From NCBI RefSeq assembly GCF_028714975.1, contig NZ_JAQTLH010000004.1, forward strand, positions 124,001 to 188,000: 64,000 nucleotides of DNA, given 5' to 3'. A program made the translations under genes and the position numbers. Source of the stretch: Sulfurimonas sp. Its GTDB lineage: Bacteria > Campylobacterota > Campylobacteria > Campylobacterales > Sulfurimonadaceae. Position 1 is the first letter of the stretch, and the number at the start of each line of letters is the position of its first letter. Positions 3,080 through 32,851 of the stretch are shown here, in pieces. The notes below the pieces were generated by a model. The model made no database searches. It was not told the DNA's origin and worked only from the letters and a program-made list of their open reading frames with translations.

Positions 3080-3301
3080 TTGTCTATATTTCAAGCTTCA
3101 ATTCTCAAAACATATAAACAAGATGAATCTTTAGTTGCAAAACGCTGGAGTGCTTATCAAAACTATTTAGCAAAAATAGAGTTTATAAAAACAGTAAAAG
3201 AGGAAAAATACCAAGACGGTTTTCTGCATGATATCTTTGAGGAGTGTTTAGGCTACACGCTTAAAACGATTAATCCCACTAATGTAAGGTTCACATTATG
3301 A
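3080..3301 (+). pseudogene. N-terminal stub of a type IIG (Eco57I-like) restriction-modification enzyme
   Basis: 73 residues starting at TTG. The opening MSIFQASILK and the later EEKYQDGFLHDIF...LGYTL...NPTN match what I know of the extreme N-terminus of large Eco57I/TaqI-like restriction-methylase fusions of about 1000 residues. Everything downstream, including the methylase, is missing and the frame ends a few residues after NPTN. The stop overlaps the ATG of the next gene (ATGA), so the stub is now translationally coupled to the membrane nuclease gene. It may be a leftover of an R-M gene replaced by recombination, or a retained leader. Confidence 0.6.
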
Positions 3302-4623
3302 TTTCATATACCATCATTATTATTCTCTTTGTTGCTATTGGTTATTTATATTGGCAAAATAAAAAGAAACTTGAAAAATACTCAGCAATCATCGATCTTG
3401 AATTGGAAGTAGAAAAAATCAAAAAACAAATAGATAAAACTAGTATTGAGTTTAATGACCTGCGAAGCGAGTATAAAACAAAATTACAAATAATGAGGGA
3501 TCTTGAAAAAGAGTTGGAAAAAGTAGAAGAAGAGTATGAATTGACTAGCTATGGATTCTATAAGCCAACATATATTTTTGACACATCGGAGCGATATAAG
3601 CAGGAACTCGATCTCATCAAAGAAAAGCAAAAACAGATGATACAAGCCAAGACAGCTGTGATGTGTTCTACTAACTGGACAGTAGATGGAAATAAGAGAG
3701 AAGGGCAGAAAATGACAGATAAATCTATCAAGCTAACCCTCCGAGCATTTAATGGCGAATGTGATGCAATCATCTCTAATGTAAAGTGGAATAATTATAA
3801 TACCATGCAAGAGAGAATTAATAAGGCGTACGAAACCATAGATAAGCTCAATGAGTCAAATAAAGTGAATATTGCCTACCAATACCTACAATTAAAGCTT
3901 CAAGAACTGAAATTAACACATGAATACCGTGAAAAAGCGCAAGACGAGAAAGAAGAACAACGTGCTATCCGTGAACAGATGCGTGAAGAAGAAAAAGCTC
4001 AAAAAGAACTCGAAAAAGCACAGCAAGATGCTGAAAAAGAAGAAGCGCAATACCAAAAAGCATTGAAAAAAGCCCATGAGCAGCTAGCTGGTGCGAAAGC
4101 TGAAGAGTTAGGAGCACTTGAGGGTCAAATTAAAGAACTCGAAGTAAAACTTGCTGAAGCTGAAGCGAAAAAAGAACGTGCTCTTTCGATGGCACAGCAA
4201 ACCCGATCAGGGCATGTTTATGTTATTTCTAATATTGGTTCATTTGGTGAGAATGTTTATAAAATCGGTATGACACGTCGGCTTGAACCACTTGATCGTG
4301 TTCGTGAACTTGGAGATGCCTCCGTACCATTTCTTTTTGATGTTCATGCAATGATCTATTCTAAAGACGCACCAAAACTTGAAAGAAGTCTTCATGTAAT
4401 CTTTAATGATAATCGCGTAAATATGGTAAACGGAAGAAAAGAATTTTTTAATGTGTCGTTAGACCTTGTTGAACAAGAGGTTAAAAGATTAGGCGAAACG
4501 ATTGAATTTACAAAGATTGTTGAAGCGAAAGAATACAATGAGACAATCTCAATGCGCAATGCAGGTACTCATCCTACAGTTGAGGATATAGCAGATGATG
4601 ATCGTTTTCCTGATGAACTTTAA
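3298..4623 (+). CDS. Membrane-anchored DUF4041 / GIY-YIG (T5orf172) nuclease, SNIPE-like phage defence protein
   Basis: 441 residues in four parts. Residues 3-19 form one transmembrane helix with short polar flanks. Residues 25-80 are a coiled coil. Residues 85-200 match DUF4041 (YGFY..., WTVDG, MTDKSIKLTLRAFNGECDA). After a long charged coiled coil (200-300) a GIY-YIG domain of the T5orf172/MUG113 type spans about 305-400, with GHVYVISN, VYKIGMTRR and a later glutamate (E362). This is the architecture I recall for the E. coli SNIPE protein, which sits at the inner membrane and cuts incoming phage DNA. Function here is inferred from architecture. It starts in an ATGA overlap with the restriction stub. 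Confidence 0.8.
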   Translation: MISYTIIIILFVAIGYLYWQNKKKLEKYSAIIDLELEVEKIKKQIDKTSIEFNDLRSEYKTKLQIMRDLEKELEKVEEEYELTSYGFYKPTYIFDTSERYKQELDLIKEKQKQMIQAKTAVMCSTNWTVDGNKREGQKMTDKSIKLTLRAFNGECDAIISNVKWNNYNTMQERINKAYETIDKLNESNKVNIAYQYLQLKLQELKLTHEYREKAQDEKEEQRAIREQMREEEKAQKELEKAQQDAEKEEAQYQKALKKAHEQLAGAKAEELGALEGQIKELEVKLAEAEAKKERALSMAQQTRSGHVYVISNIGSFGENVYKIGMTRRLEPLDRVRELGDASVPFLFDVHAMIYSKDAPKLERSLHVIFNDNRVNMVNGRKEFFNVSLDLVEQEVKRLGETIEFTKIVEAKEYNETISMRNAGTHPTVEDIADDDRFPDEL

Positions 4624-6394: not shown

Positions 6395-7186
6395 ATGACA
6401 AAAACAAAATATTTACTATATGCTTTCAAGCTGAAAAAAACTAAAACATACCAATATTGGTATGAGAGTGATAGTAAATATTTTAGTGAAAAAAAACCTC
6501 CGTTAAGCATCTTAAACGATAGAACAGATGAGTGTAGTTTTATAGATGATAAGGATATTACTAAAAACCCTTGGAATAATTGGGATAGCAAAAACATACA
6601 AACTATTACAACATCAAAAGGTGTTTGTATTAACTACTTAAAATCAACAAATCAAGATTTAATTCAAAAAGAAGAAGATTTAAAGCTCTTAGAAGTTTAT
6701 GATTATTTGGTAGATAACCTTGATATATCAAAATCTTTCAATTTTAACACCATTAAAAAATGGCATAAAGCGATTTTTGAAACTATATACCCTTTTGCCG
6801 GTGATTTAAGAACTGTTGAGATGCGCAAGGGTAGCGGAGATGAAGCTTGGTGTTGGCGATTAGAATTTTTAGAGGCTATTCCTCAGCTTGATGAGTTAAT
6901 TGTAAAGATTAGTAAAACTAACTATGATGATATAGATATAATTACCTTAGATTTGGCTCAATTTATTAGTGAGTTTCTTTTCATGCATCCATTTAGAGAA
7001 GGTAATGGCAGGCTGAGTAGATTGGTATGTGATATTATTTTGGCTAAAAATGGTTTTCCAATGATAGGATTAAATTTAAAAAATGGCGATAACTATATTC
7101 AAAAAATTCATCAAGGCTATAATTGTAATTATGAACCTATGAGAGAGTTGTTGAAATCAAAAATTGAGGAAATTATGAATGGATAA
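6395..7186 (+). CDS. fic: Fic-domain AMP-transferase toxin
   Basis: 263 residues with the complete Fic active motif HPFREGNGRLSR at 198-209, including the catalytic His198 and the terminal arginine, plus the target-docking flap GDLRTVEMRKG around 136-146. Such proteins transfer AMP from ATP to protein hydroxyl groups. The usual self-inhibitory motif (S/T)xxxE(G/N) is not visible in the protein itself, which marks it as class I, needing a separate antitoxin. A matching antitoxin is encoded on the opposite strand, overlapping the last 14 bases of this gene. The ATG is preceded by AAAAAGCTGATTAAT, a weak ribosome site. Confidence 0.9.
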   Translation: MTKTKYLLYAFKLKKTKTYQYWYESDSKYFSEKKPPLSILNDRTDECSFIDDKDITKNPWNNWDSKNIQTITTSKGVCINYLKSTNQDLIQKEEDLKLLEVYDYLVDNLDISKSFNFNTIKKWHKAIFETIYPFAGDLRTVEMRKGSGDEAWCWRLEFLEAIPQLDELIVKISKTNYDDIDIITLDLAQFISEFLFMHPFREGNGRLSRLVCDIILAKNGFPMIGLNLKNGDNYIQKIHQGYNCNYEPMRELLKSKIEEIMNG

Positions 7187-25394: not shown

Positions 25395-27779
25395 ATGCAA
25401 TACATACGCTTTTTCAATGAACTTGGCATCGGTGATGTTCCGATGGTTGGCGGTAAAAACGCTTCGCTTGGAGAGATGTACCAAAACCTAACCCCAAAGG
25501 GCGTAAATATTCCAAACGGTTTTGCCACCACAAGCGATGCTTACTGGCTTCTTCTTGAAGAAAACGCCATTAAAGATAAAATTGCTCAGATACTGAGTGA
25601 TTTGGATATAACCGATACAGATAATCTTCAAAAACGCGGACTTGAAGTCCGTACCCTTATCTTAAACTCACATCTTCCAAAAGTGCTTGTTGATGAACTT
25701 CTTGAAGCATATAAAATATTATCAAATCAGTATAACTCACAAAATATCGATGTAGCGGTTCGCTCATCCGGAACTGCCGAAGATTTGCCCGATGCCTCTT
25801 TTGCGGGACAACAAGAGACTTTTTTAAATGTCAACTCAAAAGAAGCATTGCTTGAGAGCGTATTGCGTTGTTTTGCTTCACTGTTTACCGACCGCGCCAT
25901 CAGCTACCGCACAAGCCGCTCTTTTAGCCATTTCAAAGTTGCTCTCTCCGTGGGTGTGCAGAAGATGGTACGAAGCGATATCTCTTCAAGCGGGATTATG
26001 TTTACCATAGACACCGAGAGCGGTTCAGAGAATCTCATACTCATCAACTCCATCTGGGGGTTGGGCGAAAATGTGGTAAGCGGGCGAGTAAATGCGGATG
26101 AATTTTTTATCTTTAAACCTACTCTAAAAAATGGAATCGACACTATTTTAAAACACTCTTTGGGAAGTAAAAAAGAGAAGATGTTATACAGCGAAGATAC
26201 ACGCACTCTAAATGTCGTAACAACGAAAGAGGAACAAGAGAGCTTCTCCATAAATGATAAAGAAGTAATAGAACTTGCCAAGCAGGCACTTATCATCGAA
26301 GAGCATTATAAACGACCGATGGATATCGAATGGGCAAAAGACGGAGGCGACTCTAAGCTCTACATCGTTCAGGCAAGACCGGAAACCGTAATGAGCAAAC
26401 AAAACAAAAGTATGACAAGTGAACAATATTCACTTAACGCAAAAGATGCAAAAATTTTAACATCGGGACGCGCAATCGGTGAAAAAATCGGTACGGGGAA
26501 AGTAACCGTTATAAATGATACTACCGAATTTGCACGCTTTAAAGAGGGTGACATCTTAGTAGCAGATACGACAAATCCCGACTGGGAGCCTGTTATGAAA
26601 AAAGCTTCGGCAGTCATAACCAACCGCGGAAGCCGTACATGTCATGCGGCTATCGTTGCGCGAGAAATAGGCGTTCCTGCCGTCGTCGGATGCGGCAATG
26701 CAACGGCAGTTTTGCAAGATGGACAAATAGTAACCGTCAGTTGTGCCGAGGGTGATGAGGGGCATGTGTATGAAGGCAAACTTGAGTACTCCATCAAAAC
26801 GATAGATATGAGCAAACTTAAACCTACAAAAACCAAACTTTTTGTAAATGTCGGAAATCCTGCAGAGGCTTTTAACTTTGCAAAAATGCCAAATGACGGA
26901 GTCGGACTTGCCAGAATGGAGTTTATTATGAACAACTCCATCAACGCTCATCCTATGGCGCTTGTTGATATGCACAAAGGAAAAAGTGTTAAAGATGAGG
27001 ATAAAATCCGCTCTTTTATGATTCCTTGCACTGATGAAAAAGAGTTCTTTTTACAAAAAATCAGCGAGGGTGTAGGAATGATTGCGGCTGCTTTTTACCC
27101 AAAACCGGTAATTATAAGAACAAGTGATTTTAAAAGCAACGAGTACCGCGGTATGACGGGCGGTCTTATTTATGAGGCAGAGGAAGAAAATCCTATGATA
27201 GGCTTTCGCGGTGCGAGCCGTTACTACGATGATAGTTACCGTGAAGCATTTATGTGGGAGTGCGAGGCATTAAAGAGAGTGCGTGACGATATGGGGCTTA
27301 CAAATATTAAAATAATGATTCCGTTTGTCCGCACACCCGAGGAGGGCAAAAAAGTTATAGAGATTATGAACGAGCAAGGGCTTACTCAAGGCAAAAACTC
27401 TCTTGAGATCTATGCAATGTGCGAAATTCCCGCAAATGTTATACTTGCCGATAAGTTTTTAGAAGTTTTTGACGGCTACTCAATCGGCTCAAACGACTTA
27501 ACTCAACTGACTCTTGGGGTTGACAGGGAGAGCGCAAAAATCGCCCATATATTTGACGAGAGAAACGAAGCGGTTAAGAGAATGCTACAAATGGCTATAG
27601 AGGCATGCAAGAAAAGAGGAAAATATATAGGCATCTGCGGACAAGCACCGTCTGATTATCCGGAAATCACGGAGTTTTTGGTACTTGGCGGTATAGACTC
27701 CATCTCGCTAAATCCTGATTCGCTCTTTAAAATGCATCAAGTGGTGAGTGATTTGGAGATAAGCATATCTAAAAAGTAG
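25395..27779 (+). CDS. ppsA: Phosphoenolpyruvate synthase
   Basis: 794 residues. The nucleotide-binding N-terminus has [11 protein letters not shown] and [25 protein letters not shown]. The phospho-histidine domain has [20 protein letters not shown]. The C-terminal PEP barrel ends with GICGQAPSD and its active Cys. It makes PEP from pyruvate and ATP, the entry to gluconeogenesis in autotrophic Campylobacterota. AGAGGGC lies before the ATG. Confidence 0.95.
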
Positions 27780-27840
27780 ATTGCCACGCCTCTTAAAGAG
27801 GCTTGCAATGACGGTCATTGCGAACGCAGTGAAGCAATCT
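27778..27840. repeat. Paired ATTGC-type REP-like element after ppsA
   Basis: Two half-elements: AGATTGCCACGCCTCTTAAA.. with an internal GCCTCTT/AAGAGGC hairpin, then GTCATTGCGAACGCAGTGAAGCAATCT. It belongs to the same family as 34464-34594 and 49656-49696 and may also end the ppsA transcript. Confidence 0.6.
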
Positions 27841-27951
27841 CTATTTGTTTAGATTATTCAGAGGATTCAATTTCTTTCTAAAATACTTTTCAAGCTCCAT
27901 CACCCCAACCAGTGTCAGAGCGATAAGAAGTAGTGTTGTCCACATCTCTAA
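27841..27951 (-). pseudogene. Remnant of the 3' end of a P-type ATPase gene
   Basis: Read on the minus strand, 34 codons give MWTTLLLIALTLVGVMELEK followed by YFRKK. This matches the C-terminus of the ATPase encoded at 30176-32746 (MWTALLFIAMTLVAVMELEK, YFRKK) at all but a few residues, with diverged DNA. The copies point the same way and lie on opposite sides of the three-gene cassette, so the cassette probably entered at the end of the ATPase gene and left a duplicated or displaced end. Confidence 0.8.
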
Positions 27952-27967
27952 AATAATAATTAACTGA

Positions 27968-28062
27968 TAAAGTAGCCTGTTATGACACTTGTGACCAATA
28001 ATACAAAAGAGTTGAAAATCTAAAATTTGATAATTGGGTGTAAGTTATGCAGGCTACTTTTA
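27968..28062. repeat. Left boundary repeats of the three-gene cassette
   Basis: AAAGTAGCCTG (27969-27979) is the exact inverse of CAGGCTACTTT (28050-28060). The latter extends to AGGCTACTTTTA (28051-28062), found again at 30062-30073 on the far side. AAATTTGATAA (28023-28033) before it also has a near match at the right side. Confidence 0.7.
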
Positions 28063-28069
28063 AACTATT

Positions 28070-28597
28070 CTACTTTGGAATAGGAACAAGTTTAGAAAAT
28101 GTTTCTCTCAAGAAAATCCTTAATAAATTTTTACCACTCTTTGAAGTTACGCCAATACTACAAATATCGGCATGTGAAAGCAAATCAATCATTGCCGTAT
28201 CGTATATTGCCATGGCTCTTTTTGAGTCTAAGATGCATTCACGAATAGTTTTTGCTTGAACTGTAATATAGCCATGATATCCGTGTATATCTTTTTTCTT
28301 ATTGTTGCCAATCTCAATAATTTTGGTAGTATCTACTTGATTGCACCGTAAAACCGAAAGCCCTTTGTTTAATATGTCGTCAAATGCCAAAGTAGTTAGA
28401 CTCCCAGTACTTATATCATAATGATGTGGCGAGAAGATATTTCGTGCCAATCCTTCATCATCTTTTACCACTCCACAAGAGTACAAACTAACACTTTCCT
28501 TCTCCCATTCTAAAGATTGTTCATAATTTTCAGTCAAATAATGGCATTTTTTAGAGGATGAGTCAGGATTGCTAAAAAAATCCTTTGCAGATTCCAA
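28070..28597 (-). CDS. Unknown protein, third gene of the TIGR04255-type cassette
   Basis: 175 residues, soluble, no recognised domain. The segment FSPHHYDISTG..TTLAFDDILNKGLSVLR resembles a short conserved core I associate with small proteins of sporadic distribution, but I cannot name the family. It starts 11 bases after the preceding gene ends, so the three genes read as one operon. It contains several Cys (residues 18, 41, 84, 118, 145). Confidence 0.6.
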   Translation of the reverse strand: MESAKDFFSNPDSSSKKCHYLTENYEQSLEWEKESVSLYSCGVVKDDEGLARNIFSPHHYDISTGSLTTLAFDDILNKGLSVLRCNQVDTTKIIEIGNNKKKDIHGYHGYITVQAKTIRECILDSKRAMAIYDTAMIDLLSHADICSIGVTSKSGKNLLRIFLRETFSKLVPIPK

Positions 28598-28608
28598 AGT
28601 GACAATCC

Positions 28609-29142
28609 CTATACATTTCTATTAATATTAGAAATTCTTGTTGTTAAATCACTTGAAAAAGCATTGTGTATTATTTTATCCTCTTCGATAAAAGGAACTT
28701 TACCTTTCATATATACAAATGTGTATGATTCTGAATTATCACAAGTTATTTCAGCATATTCGTTCCCATTTTCCCAATAAAAACCAATTTCAGCCGAGCC
28801 AGATAACATTATTTTTGGTGCTTTAAATGCATAGCTTTGAAATTGTAACAATAGTTTCTCACCTGCACTGATGATATCAAAAGTTGGTGCTTTTCCACCA
28901 TAACCATCCCAATCATATTGTAAAGATAAATAACTATGTAATGTGTTTATAGCATTTATATATTCGTCACTAAAAATCAGGTCTTTAGATTTCGATATAG
29001 AATATATTGGTTTAAATGATGTACTTGTATCTTTTGTCTGTGCTTCGATGCCTACGGGTGGAAAAGTAGGTATATTGATTTGTGTAGCTGGTGTAGATAA
29101 AGCCATTACTGTTGAAATTACTGTAACACTAGTACTAAACAT
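28609..29142 (-). CDS. Unknown protein with DWDGYGG motif, second gene of the cassette
   Basis: 177 residues. The first 20 are mildly hydrophobic. The core is LQYDWDGYGGKAPTFDIISAGEKLLLQF, then KIMLSGSAEIGFYWENGNEYAEI, a pattern seen in small unannotated proteins with a Trp-Asp-Gly-Tyr-Gly turn followed by a strand-rich half. The ATG overlaps the stop of the upstream gene by one base (TAATG). Function unknown. Confidence 0.6.
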   Translation of the reverse strand: MFSTSVTVISTVMALSTPATQINIPTFPPVGIEAQTKDTSTSFKPIYSISKSKDLIFSDEYINAINTLHSYLSLQYDWDGYGGKAPTFDIISAGEKLLLQFQSYAFKAPKIMLSGSAEIGFYWENGNEYAEITCDNSESYTFVYMKGKVPFIEEDKIIHNAFSSDLTTRISNINRNV

Positions 29143-29948
29143 TACTTACACTCCAACTGAATTCTTGTACAAATTTCTGATGATAATAAATTACACATTA
29201 CTTCTTTATTTAAAAGATGATTTTGCTCAATGATTGGTTCAATTGCACTGATGACATCTGATGAGTTAGTAGAAACTGGAATTAAATTTGAGCAAGTTGT
29301 TTTATGATGCGTTTGTATAACAACTTTAGGACTCATTTTTTCATCTAAAAAATAATTCATGTTAATATTATTTAAATTTTTATGCTCATGATTTAAATAA
29401 TACCCTTGGTGAATGTGCCAAAAATCATCTTTAGACCATATGTGGTTCGGAATAAAATCATTATTTTCTCTAAATAATTCCTTTTTCCAGTCTTTTGAAG
29501 CGTCAGAAATTTTGAACTCATCAATATATTCTATTCCAATTTCCTGAATGTTATTGCCCTCTAGTGAAGGCATGAAGAAATCTATATATTCTTTTGCTGT
29601 AGCCCATACTTCATCCCATCTTGTATAATCACTACACCCAATAGTTAAAAAATTATTTGCTAAATTAACAAACCATTTTTGTCTTCCATCGGGCAACAAA
29701 GTGTCAAATATAACTCCATTCACCATTGGAGAGTGTATATGTTGTGGTTGTTCTATCATACCGCCAATCTGAAAACTGATCATATTCTGTGGCTGACATC
29801 TCGGTAATTTGGCAATCATATCAGGAGCATTTTGATAATTAGTAATGACATTTTTAATAACAGTATCATTTATTTGTGCCGATAAAACAAATATAAATGC
29901 GACTTTTTCAATGGCATTATTACTATTTTGAAGAATAATATTCTTCAT
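29142..29948 (-). CDS. TIGR04255-like protein, first gene of the cassette
   Basis: 268 residues. FVNLANNFLTIGCSDYTRWDEVW and IQEIGIEYIDEFKI fit the pattern of TIGR04255 proteins (a strand with Y-x-x-W and a later IGLRYIN-like strand), a sporadic family of unknown function often found in accessory regions. AGGTAATTTG precedes the ATG. A 227-base AT-rich region upstream probably holds the promoter. It lies in the same orientation as the P-type ATPase gene. Confidence 0.6.
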   Translation of the reverse strand: MKNIILQNSNNAIEKVAFIFVLSAQINDTVIKNVITNYQNAPDMIAKLPRCQPQNMISFQIGGMIEQPQHIHSPMVNGVIFDTLLPDGRQKWFVNLANNFLTIGCSDYTRWDEVWATAKEYIDFFMPSLEGNNIQEIGIEYIDEFKISDASKDWKKELFRENNDFIPNHIWSKDDFWHIHQGYYLNHEHKNLNNINMNYFLDEKMSPKVVIQTHHKTTCSNLIPVSTNSSDVISAIEPIIEQNHLLNKEVMCNLLSSEICTRIQLECK

Positions 29949-30175
29949 TCAAATTACCTCTTTTTTTATAATTTCATTGCTTTTCAATGATTTTAACATA
30001 TAAAGGATAAATAGTTGCTGCTAAAAAATCAAATTATCAAATTTTGATAACTTGATAGAATAGGCTACTTTTAGTGATTTTCGCATAAATACTCAACTCC
30101 TTTTAAAATTAACTTATTCCAAAGGGTTACATCGGATGTTCTACTCCCTTTGCCAAAGTAGAAAAGAAACTATCT
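29949..30175. other. AT-rich spacer and right boundary of the cassette
   Basis: Non-coding. It holds the palindrome TTATCAAATTTTGATAA (30035-30051) and the boundary repeat AGGCTACTTTTA (30062-30073). The ATPase stop follows at 30176. Confidence 0.5.
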
Positions 30176-32746
30176 TTATGACGAGTATTTCTTTCTAAAA
30201 TATTTTTCAAGCTCCATTACTGCAACTAATGTCATAGCAATAAATAGCAGTGCAGTCCACATTGCTAAACTAACCGGCTCAATACTCAGCAGTGATTGCA
30301 TAAAAGGATTGTACATTGATATAATGTGAGCACCTTGAGCGGCTAAAATAGATACCCATAAAAATTTATTTTGAAAATGATTTATTTTAAAAATAGAATT
30401 ATTTTCACTGCGTGAATTAAATATATGTACATTTTCAAACAACACCATTAAAAGCAGTGTAAGATTTCTTGCCGCATCCTCTTGATAACCAAACTTAAGC
30501 AAGGTATAAAAAAGAGCAAATGCCGAGACACCCATGTAAAGACCGCCGACAACCACTCTGCTCATCATAATTTTATTAAATATAGGCTCTTTTGGGTCGC
30601 GCGGTTTACGCTTTAGTATCTCCGGTTCAGCTTTTTCAGTAGCAAGAGCTACATCTTGAAAGCCGTTTGCAACCAAATTTAGCCATAAAAGCTGTACCGG
30701 AAGCAGCGGAGTAGGGATAAAAAACAGCATTGAGAGCAAAATAAGAACTATCTCTGCCAATCCCGTAGCTATTAAAAGATGGGTAACTTTGCGAATATTG
30801 TCATATGCCACTCGTCCCTCTTCTACACCATTGACAATAGAGTTAAATGCATCATCCGTCAAAATCAAATCACTTGACTCGCGCGCAACATCCGTACCGC
30901 TTTTTCCCATTGCGATGCCTATATTTGCAAATTTAAGAGCCGGTGCATCATTTACACCGTCTCCCGTAACTGCTACAAAGTGACCGAGATCTTGAAATGT
31001 TTTAACGATAAGCTGTTTTTGTTCAGGTGAGACTCGTGCAAAGACTCTTTTATGAGCAATCTCTTCTTTATGTGCTCCCCTTTCTATCCAGTGAGAGATT
31101 TCCACTCCGTCTATCACCTCATCTTTGCTAATAGCAATGCCAAGCTCTTTTGCTATAAAAAATGCCGTATTTGGATGATCACCGGTTACCATCACAACTT
31201 CAATACCCGCTCTCTCGGTAGTTTTTACAGCTTCTTTTACTCCATCACGCAAAGGGTCCGTGATGGCGGCAAACCCAAGATAGACATAACCTTCTTTGGC
31301 AATTTCGCTCTCATTGCTTGCTTTATACGCCAAAGCGATATTCCTAAATCCTTTAGCAGCCCACTCATCCACTTGTTTTAAAATATACTCTTTCTTATCA
31401 TCATTCATTTCACACTTGCTGATTATAACCTCCGGTGAGCCTTTTATAAAGTGTAATTTTTTATACTCTATCTCATAACTCGCGGCAGAGTATTTATTTA
31501 CAGGCTCATAAGGCACACTGTTTATAGCTTTAAGGGTTTTATGTTTTTCAAAGAGCGACTCATCCAAAGCAAGTGCATATCTCGCTAACGCGACATCAAC
31601 CTGATCTCCAATAAAAACAAACTCATCACTCTCTTTGTGAAAAGTTGATTCATTACATAAAATTGCTCCAAGAAGCAGATATTCATTGATATGTTCGCTT
31701 GGGTTATATGTTTGTTCAGGTGTTACAAAATGCTCGACACTAAGACGATTTTGAGTCATTGTTCCGGTTTTATCACTTGCGATAAGCGTACAAGAGCCGA
31801 GTCCTTCAATGGCTGAGAGTCTGCGGACTATGACATTTCGTCTGCTCATAACAGCGCTTGCAACACTAAGCGCCACCGTAATAGCTACCGGAAGTCCCTC
31901 GGGAATGGCAGATATAGCCAGTATTACCGTTAAGAAAAATATATCTTTAAGCGGCATTTCTTGATAAATTCCGAGCATAATTATTAATAATGCAACCCCG
32001 CCGATCATCTTAGATATATTTACTGAAAATATCTCCATTCGAAGCATTAACGGCGGTTTTGCAGTTTTGGCGGTGGCAAGAAGCGCGGCTATTTTACCGA
32101 CTTCTGTTTGGTTTGCGATAGCCGTTACTACTCCGATTGCACGACCTTTTGTAACCAAAGAACCTCCGTAGAGCATATTTTGTCTCTCGCCTATGGGCTC
32201 ATCGGCATTGGTGGAGATATAAGCGGGATTTTTATTTACATCAATAGACTCACCGGTAAGAAGAGACTCATTTACTTGAAGTTCATTGGTTTCTATAAGT
32301 CGTATGTCAGCGGGTACCTTAACACCTGATTCAAAAAAAACAATATCCCCGACCGTAACATCTTCGCTTGATATTTCAACTCTATGACCATCTCTTAAAA
32401 CATTGACAAAAGTTTTGATTACTCTCTTTAGAGCATCGGCTCTCTCACCGGCAATGTACTCCTGATATGCTCCGACTATCGCATTTATGCTAAGCGCAAC
32501 CATTATAAATCCGGCATCGCCAAACTCTTTAATAGCTAATGAAACACCGGCAGCCATTAACAAAATATAGATAACGGGGCTTTTAAACTGTTCTACAAAT
32601 ATCCAAAAAAGAGTGCGTTTTTTAGCTTCTTGTAAAATATTTTTTCCGTAATGTTCGCTGCGAGAGAGAACTTCCTCTTTGCTCAATCCATCTACACTGC
32701 ACCCTAAATCTCTAAGAGTCTCTTCTACGCTTTTAGTATGAAACAT
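30176..32746 (-). CDS. P-type cation-transporting ATPase (P2 type)
   Basis: 856 residues from MFHTKSVEETL; GGAGG lies 5 bases before this ATG, so I prefer it to the frame start five codons earlier. Phosphorylation motif DKTGTMTQ is near 325, the actuator loop LLTGES near 165, PEGLP in M4, and GDGVNDAPAL in the hinge. The ion is uncertain: M4 suits Ca2+/Na+/K+ pumps, while M6 (NLVANGFQD) lacks the usual TDGxPA of Ca2+ pumps. A 34-codon remnant of the same C-terminus lies 2.3 kb downstream. Confidence 0.92.
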   Translation of the reverse strand: MFHTKSVEETLRDLGCSVDGLSKEEVLSRSEHYGKNILQEAKKRTLFWIFVEQFKSPVIYILLMAAGVSLAIKEFGDAGFIMVALSINAIVGAYQEYIAGERADALKRVIKTFVNVLRDGHRVEISSEDVTVGDIVFFESGVKVPADIRLIETNELQVNESLLTGESIDVNKNPAYISTNADEPIGERQNMLYGGSLVTKGRAIGVVTAIANQTEVGKIAALLATAKTAKPPLMLRMEIFSVNISKMIGGVALLIIMLGIYQEMPLKDIFFLTVILAISAIPEGLPVAITVALSVASAVMSRRNVIVRRLSAIEGLGSCTLIASDKTGTMTQNRLSVEHFVTPEQTYNPSEHINEYLLLGAILCNESTFHKESDEFVFIGDQVDVALARYALALDESLFEKHKTLKAINSVPYEPVNKYSAASYEIEYKKLHFIKGSPEVIISKCEMNDDKKEYILKQVDEWAAKGFRNIALAYKASNESEIAKEGYVYLGFAAITDPLRDGVKEAVKTTERAGIEVVMVTGDHPNTAFFIAKELGIAISKDEVIDGVEISHWIERGAHKEEIAHKRVFARVSPEQKQLIVKTFQDLGHFVAVTGDGVNDAPALKFANIGIAMGKSGTDVARESSDLILTDDAFNSIVNGVEEGRVAYDNIRKVTHLLIATGLAEIVLILLSMLFFIPTPLLPVQLLWLNLVANGFQDVALATEKAEPEILKRKPRDPKEPIFNKIMMSRVVVGGLYMGVSAFALFYTLLKFGYQEDAARNLTLLLMVLFENVHIFNSRSENNSIFKINHFQNKFLWVSILAAQGAHIISMYNPFMQSLLSIEPVSLAMWTALLFIAMTLVAVMELEKYFRKKYSS

Positions 32747-32851
32747 AAAATCCTCCCTCACCGTTTTATATATGCATTATCATAGTTTCTACTAGCTTAA
32801 ACTCGACTTCACTTGATATATATAAAATAAAATTATGATAGAATTTCACTA

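What the first reader, a model, noticed from the sequence alone, without database searches (positions are those of the whole stretch)
28070..29948. TIGR04255-like protein plus two small unknown proteins: candidate undescribed system
Three tightly packed genes (1-base overlap, 11-base gap), all of sporadic, unknown families, sit as one removable unit. The DWDGYGG and FSPHHYD..GLSVLR cores seem conserved patterns. The set has the features of a self-contained defence or conflict system but no enzyme is recognised.
Basis: inference. Interest (0 to 1): 0.7.

Follow-up and report, generated by a model that had tools for sequence, protein, structure and literature searches.

The report
Mobile three-gene cassette with swappable effectors
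Three small bacterial genes travel together as one insertable unit in distant bacteria and phages; the first encodes a protein predicted to resemble a DNA-clamping fold and elsewhere leads other gene pairs, which suggests a modular, probably defence or toxin-antitoxin type, system whose function is still untested.

Summary
Genes A (29142-29948, TIGR04255, E=3.8e-13), B (28609-29142) and C (28070-28597) form one operon inside a 2.4-kb, low-GC insert that is missing at the same junction in a close relative. In 15 loci the identity matrices of A, B and C agree (Mantel 0 of 5000 for each pair).

A is a hub. Of 39 TIGR04255 loci examined, 37 carry one of five partner sets; 14 are the B type. One locus has a Zeta toxin in the third slot. 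B-like and C-like domains also occur as PADLOC candidate PDC-M32A/PDC-M32B inside a type I restriction operon, so the system is not isolated from known candidates.

AlphaFold2 gives A (pLDDT 92.7) a tandem beta-alpha-beta4-alpha layout resembling TATA-binding protein; guanidino kinases score slightly higher in one aligner. C keeps E, R, S, R and H.

Most likely this is a three-part conflict cassette: A sensor or neutraliser, B adaptor, C effector. Linkage, mobility and modularity are shown; the roles are inferred; nothing was tested in cells.

The parts
29142..29948 (-). Gene A, TIGR04255 family, 268 aa; predicted tandem TBP-like fold; first gene of the cassette
   Evidence: NCBIfam TIGR04255 E=3.8e-13, 49.8 bits, cut-off 30; model pLDDT 92.7, pTM 0.88; fold comparisons
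28609..29142 (-). Gene B, 177 aa, WDGYGG...EIG.YW domain; N-terminal hydrophobic stretch; overlaps A by one base (TAATG)
   Evidence: ORF; homologues; PDC-M32A C-terminal part E=0.0059 for this protein, 1.3e-8 for its Sulfurospirillum homologue
28070..28597 (-). Gene C, 175 aa, TTG start; conserved E48, R52, S81, R84, H142; inferred effector
   Evidence: ORF; conservation in 15 loci; distant relation to PDC-M32B
27758..30183 (.). Whole insert relative to the empty site in close relative G664 (L076); GC 0.28-0.35
27870..27956 (-). 87-nt diverged partial copy of the 3' end of the neighbouring cation-ATPase gene, at the left edge of the insert (82% to 30187-30273)

Best explanation
The three genes are one mobile, three-part conflict cassette of toxin-antitoxin or abortive-infection type. 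Shown here: an insert at a variable site, a conserved order across phyla, common inheritance of the three genes, and reuse of A with other partner sets and of a B+C-like pair inside a type I restriction operon. Inferred: A, a tandem TBP-like protein, is the common sensor or neutraliser and probably binds nucleic acid or a phage product. B, a small one-unit domain predicted to resemble KA1/TBP-like folds, often with a hydrophobic N-terminus, is the adaptor that ties the effector to A. C carries the conserved polar set E/R/S/R/H and is the effector, kept quiet in the A-B-C complex and released or switched on by infection. The chemistry of C is unknown; a nucleic-acid or nucleotide-directed activity is my guess.
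For: A-B-C order in the window, L003/L021, L004/L022, L018, L019, L020, L029, L030 and L033/L044. B was found in 6 of 330 genomes of the Aquabacterium order; A is next to it in 5, and the sixth lies 277 bp from a contig end. Mantel test on 15 loci: 0 of 5000 permutations for A-B, A-C and B-C. Of 39 TIGR04255 loci, 37 fall into five partner sets. The third slot holds a Zeta toxin in L055 (PF06414, 3.3e-9). The C-like partner in PDC-M32 takes the place that a PIN domain (PF01850, 2.7e-10) takes behind the PDC-M32A N-domain in L091, and the PDC-M32 pair of L089 sits between ORFs that I read as hsdS and hsdM. Mobile or defence settings: between TerL and portal in L022; behind tRNA-Ser and a tyrosine integrase in L018; beside an MmeI-like methylase, a helicase and T5orf172 in L020; a hotspot with RhuM and Fic in relatives. 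TBP resemblance: viral TBPs E=1.1e-5 and 1.3e-4; solved TBPs Z 6.7 over 154-157 residues. Precedent: HEPN RNases of the anti-phage RNase LS family fused to a TBP-like domain (PMC3710099, passages).
Against: No experiment. PDB Foldseek had no match at E<=0.001 for A, TM-scores were low, and guanidino kinases score Z 8.0 against TBP 6.7. The halves of A show no sequence repeat (hhalign E 0.26, reversed control 0.33). The C part of the model was barely tested by the fold search. C is found by HMM in only 8 of the 14 B-type loci, 10 with the looser run. The hydrophobic N-terminal stretch is present in 20 of 33 middle proteins, which is not more than window ORFs in general (27 of 60). The HEPN-like and peptidase-like labels of two other partner sets rest on my reading of motifs; Pfam and NCBIfam did not confirm them.
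Confidence: 0.45

Rival explanations
1. Plain tripartite toxin-antitoxin addiction module: A is a promiscuous antitoxin that neutralises many different toxins through class-specific middle proteins; the gain is maintenance of the mobile element, not phage defence.
For: Hub with five partner sets; Zeta toxin in one third slot; precedent of a promiscuous antitoxin domain, Panacea (PMC8832971, search listing only); hotspot shared with RhuM and Fic genes.
Against: Three genes rather than two; A is first and large; the PDC-M32 pair sits inside a type I restriction operon, which points to immunity.
Confidence: 0.25
2. B is the harmful part: its hydrophobic N-terminus inserts into the membrane, and A or C holds it inactive.
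For: Hydrophobic 15-mers of 1.4 or more in 20 of 33 middle proteins against 3 of 32 third proteins.
Against: 13 of 33 lack it, including L004 B; window ORFs in general are as hydrophobic (27 of 60); C carries the most conserved polar residues.
Confidence: 0.1
3. Phage cargo that helps the phage, for example superinfection exclusion or counter-defence, and only by chance left in chromosomes.
For: L022 lies between terminase and portal genes, L018 behind an integrase, and L019 is an IMG/VR contig.
Against: I see no phage genes beside the window copy or L020; tblastn found no relative of L018 B in 50,697 phage records. Exclusion would still be defence against other phages.
Confidence: 0.12
4. Metabolic or housekeeping genes of unknown role.
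For: No recognised toxin domain in the window set.
Against: Very sporadic: B in 3 of 298 genomes of the phylum by single sequence; insert absent in the relative; modular partner exchange.
Confidence: 0.05

Closest known systems
PDC-M32 (PADLOC phage defence candidate, proteins PDC-M32A and PDC-M32B)
   Same: PDC-M32A ends in a domain related to B (L003 B: E=1.3e-8, profile 246-356 of 375), and PDC-M32B is related to C (9.3 bits against 2.3 for the best decoy; L045 C against PDC-M32B E=0.0054). Same order.
   Different: PDC-M32A has its own roughly 250-aa N-terminal domain and L089 lies inside a type I restriction operon. Here that domain is absent and a separate TIGR04255 gene leads. PDC-M32 has no known mechanism to my knowledge.
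TIGR04255 (NCBIfam sporadic family)
   Same: A is a member by score.
RnlA/LsoA, RNase LS (HEPN toxin with TBP-like or similar beta-sheet domains)
   Same: A TBP-like domain linked with an anti-phage RNase (PMC3710099 passages; PMC7180214 passages). The B part of the model aligns to RnlA 6y2q at Z 4.0, 79 residues.
   Different: RnlA is one fused protein with antitoxin RnlB; no HEPN is seen in the window set; Z 4.0 is weak.
Promiscuous antitoxin systems (Panacea/PanAT)
   Same: One constant gene with exchangeable partners.
   Different: Different domain and, as I recall, two genes (PMC8832971 seen as a search listing only).

Membership tests
TIGR04255 | Score over the curated cut-off (30 bits) | tested here: met
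   49.8 bits
PDC-M32 | PDC-M32A over most of its 375 positions | tested here: not met
   Window B matches only profile positions 268-339 at E=0.0059; A has no PADLOC match
PDC-M32 | PDC-M32B homologue next to it | tested here: inconclusive
   Window C has no PDC-M32B match; the wider C profile finds L089 PDC-M32B weakly
TATA-binding-protein-like fold (A) | Two beta-alpha-beta4-alpha units in tandem | tested here: inconclusive
   Secondary structure order fits, the second unit with three long strands after the helices; viral TBPs E=1.1e-5; solved TBPs Z 6.7 below guanidino kinases 8.0; no PDB Foldseek match at E<=0.001
RnlA/LsoA | HEPN RNase domain | tested here: inconclusive
   No HEPN match in A, B or C in Pfam or NCBIfam at E up to 10, which does not exclude a diverged one
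Type II toxin-antitoxin | Toxic protein neutralised by its partner | not testable with these tools
   Needs expression tests
Anti-phage defence system | Reduced phage plating | not testable with these tools
   Needs phage challenge; only context is available

The most novel reading that the evidence does not exclude
TIGR04255 is the common recognition subunit, a bacterial tandem TBP-like saddle, of a so far unnamed family of modular immune cassettes in which at least five different adaptor-effector pairs are plugged behind the same sensor; the window set is the type whose effector pair is shared with PDC-M32 and carries a new enzyme (C, E/R/S/R/H).
Probability: 0.3. Interest if true: 0.85.

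Novelty: new variant of a known kind. Interest (0 to 1): 0.6.

Why it matters
If right, one constant gene marks a whole set of conflict cassettes that defence finders split or miss, links a named but unexplained candidate (PDC-M32) to them, and gives a testable case of a TBP-like fold used in bacterial immunity. The partner swaps also give a ready way to find new effectors: whatever sits in the third slot.

Tried and rejected
tblastn of window A, B and C against 72,556 plasmid records, of L018 A and B against plasmids, and of L018 B against phages found nothing at E<=0.01. Viral scans with the window B alone and with the A alignment found no relative. Sequence profiles of A, B and C found no solved structure at a convincing E-value. 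Internal sequence repeat in A: not detected. The SIR2 and folD-like hits of C are short and far below cut-off, so dropped. Two weak B matches in G020 and G023 were dropped: L016 shows the match inside a long ORF that I read as histidinol dehydrogenase, and L017 was not inspected. The promoter and terminator scans are at chance level. A PDC-M32A search in 61 genomes of the phylum found none; 7 of 200 in the Aquabacterium order. Absence of a known fold for C is not claimed: it was only modelled in tandem with B and barely tested.

Choices in the counts: of 37 TIGR04255 matches, 30 received loci and were classified; all 9 were; L050 and L051 give equal scores and may be the same sequence in two genomes. 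One search lists 34 loci, without L010, L011, L013, L051 and L063. The Mantel test used 15 loci that have all three genes by my assignment, including some looser ones. The B and C profiles were grown on the surveyed loci themselves, so later-round E-values are not independent. The 37-of-39 figure is presence within the locus; downstream order on the same strand was read.

Full report
What is there. Three minus-strand genes fill 28070-29948: A (268 aa), B (177 aa), C (175 aa, TTG start), with a one-base A-B overlap (TAATG) and an 11-base B-C gap. A is a TIGR04255 member. B and C have no family in Pfam, NCBIfam or PHROGs beyond weak chance-like hits; B touches the C-terminal part of PADLOC PDC-M32A at E=0.0059.

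An insert at a variable site. The flanks are convergent genes that I read from their translations as a phosphoenolpyruvate synthase (25395-27779) and a cation-transporting ATPase (30176-32761). In G664, the closest relative found (92-95% over the flanks), window 27000-27757 and 30184-31400 match with two bases between them, so the cassette and its edges are absent there. The insert has GC 0.28-0.35 against 0.38-0.45 for the flanks. Its left edge carries an 87-nt copy of the ATPase 3' end that is only 82% like the resident gene, so it was probably imported. I looked at this junction in 12 other genomes of the genus: several hold other cargo, among them a RhuM gene (L079, PF13310), a Fic gene (L082, PF02661) and an HTH gene with unknown neighbours (L077). 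The site is a hotspot.

The set is conserved as a set. A search with window B in 298 genomes of the phylum found 3: the own genome and G174 and G261, both with A-B-C in order. Contig lengths identify these as a Sulfurospirillum and an Arcobacter MAG. In L032, B and C are followed by an HNH_2 gene and A would lie off the contig end. Identity matrices of A, B and C over 15 loci correlate (Spearman 0.54, 0.55, 0.52; 0 of 5000 permutations each). Invariant or nearly so: B W78, P109, W123 (15/15); C R52, S81, H142 (15/15), E48 and R84 (14/15).

A leads other partner sets. TIGR04255 occurs in 7 of 298 genomes of the phylum and 30 of 330 of the Aquabacterium order, and in none of 14 control genomes. 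Of 39 loci classified by profile: 14 have B; 11 have an HTH protein (10 with a 'SHDCDL' protein, one, L055, with a Zeta toxin instead); 5 have a shorter 'TQxCDLE' protein; 3 have a small protein plus an ORF I read as HEPN-like; 4 have a 'GLTCATFV' protein that I read as peptidase-like; 2 are unassigned. The HEPN-like and peptidase-like readings are from motifs and were not confirmed by Pfam or NCBIfam.

Link to PDC-M32. In L089, between ORFs that I read as hsdS and hsdM, a 386-aa PDC-M32A (E=4.9e-132) is followed by a 123-aa PDC-M32B (1.5e-46). The C-terminal part of the first matches the B profile (22.9 bits; best decoy 3.2) and the second matches the C profile (9.3; best decoy 2.3). In L090 and L091 the PDC-M32A N-domain stands without the B-like part and is followed by a PIN-like ORF, confirmed by Pfam in L091 but not in L090. 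So a C-like protein and a PIN domain appear in the same slot, one reason to call C the effector.

Folds. A was modelled with 34 sequences, pLDDT 92.7. The order of elements, beta-alpha-alpha-beta4-alpha then beta-alpha-alpha-beta3-alpha, fits a tandem TBP-like protein. Two of the eight BFVD matches at E<=0.001 are viral TBPs and solved TBPs align over nearly the whole model at Z 6.7, but guanidino kinases reach Z 8.0 and PDB Foldseek gives nothing at E<=0.001. I hold TBP-like as likely, not proven. B and C were modelled as an artificial read-through of L003 (pLDDT 70.9): the B core aligns to KA1 domains at Z 5.0-5.7 and to RnlA at Z 4.0, all weak; the C core was barely tested.

How it may work. 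By architecture A is the constant part and the third gene the exchangeable one, as expected for sensor or antitoxin and effector. TBP-like domains are known in anti-phage HEPN RNases of the RNase LS family and in RNase HIII, where one binds DNA-RNA hybrids (PMC3710099, passages). I propose that A senses nucleic acid or a phage product and holds B-C silent until infection. Each role is inference.

Literature. 'TIGR04255' is in no held paper. 'PDC-M32' is in one, a Sinorhizobium prophage study that lists it as a candidate (PMC12429752, passages). Further searches listed no title or abstract that describes this set; of their results I read passages of PMC3710099 and PMC7180214 only. Most subscription-journal papers are outside that library.

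Noticed in passing
window 27758-30183 and loci L077, L079, L082: The junction between the two convergent flanking genes is a hotspot in the genus: empty in G664, with RhuM, Fic or HTH cargo in others.
   Followed up: partly
window 27870-27956: Diverged 87-nt copy of the ATPase 3' end at the left edge of the insert, probably imported with it.
   Followed up: partly
L055:78-716: Zeta toxin domain (PF06414) in the third slot of a TIGR04255-HTH cassette.
   Followed up: partly
L032:77-880: HNH_2 endonuclease gene (PF13391, 4.1e-12) directly behind a B-C pair at a contig end.
   Followed up: no
L090:1483-2804, L091:1450-2807: PDC-M32A N-domain proteins followed by PIN-like genes beside hsdS-like (and in L090 hsdM-like) ORFs; a second architecture around PDC-M32.
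   Followed up: partly
L034-L038, L040, L043, L047, L048, L052: Recurrent TIGR04255 + HTH + 'SHDCDL' protein cassette; the third genes tested (L040, L043) have no convincing Pfam match, and L043 none in NCBIfam.
   Followed up: partly
window 3298-4623 and 6395-7186: ORFs that I read as a T5orf172/GIY-YIG-like protein and a Fic protein, about 21-25 kb from the cassette; not run against family libraries.
   Followed up: no
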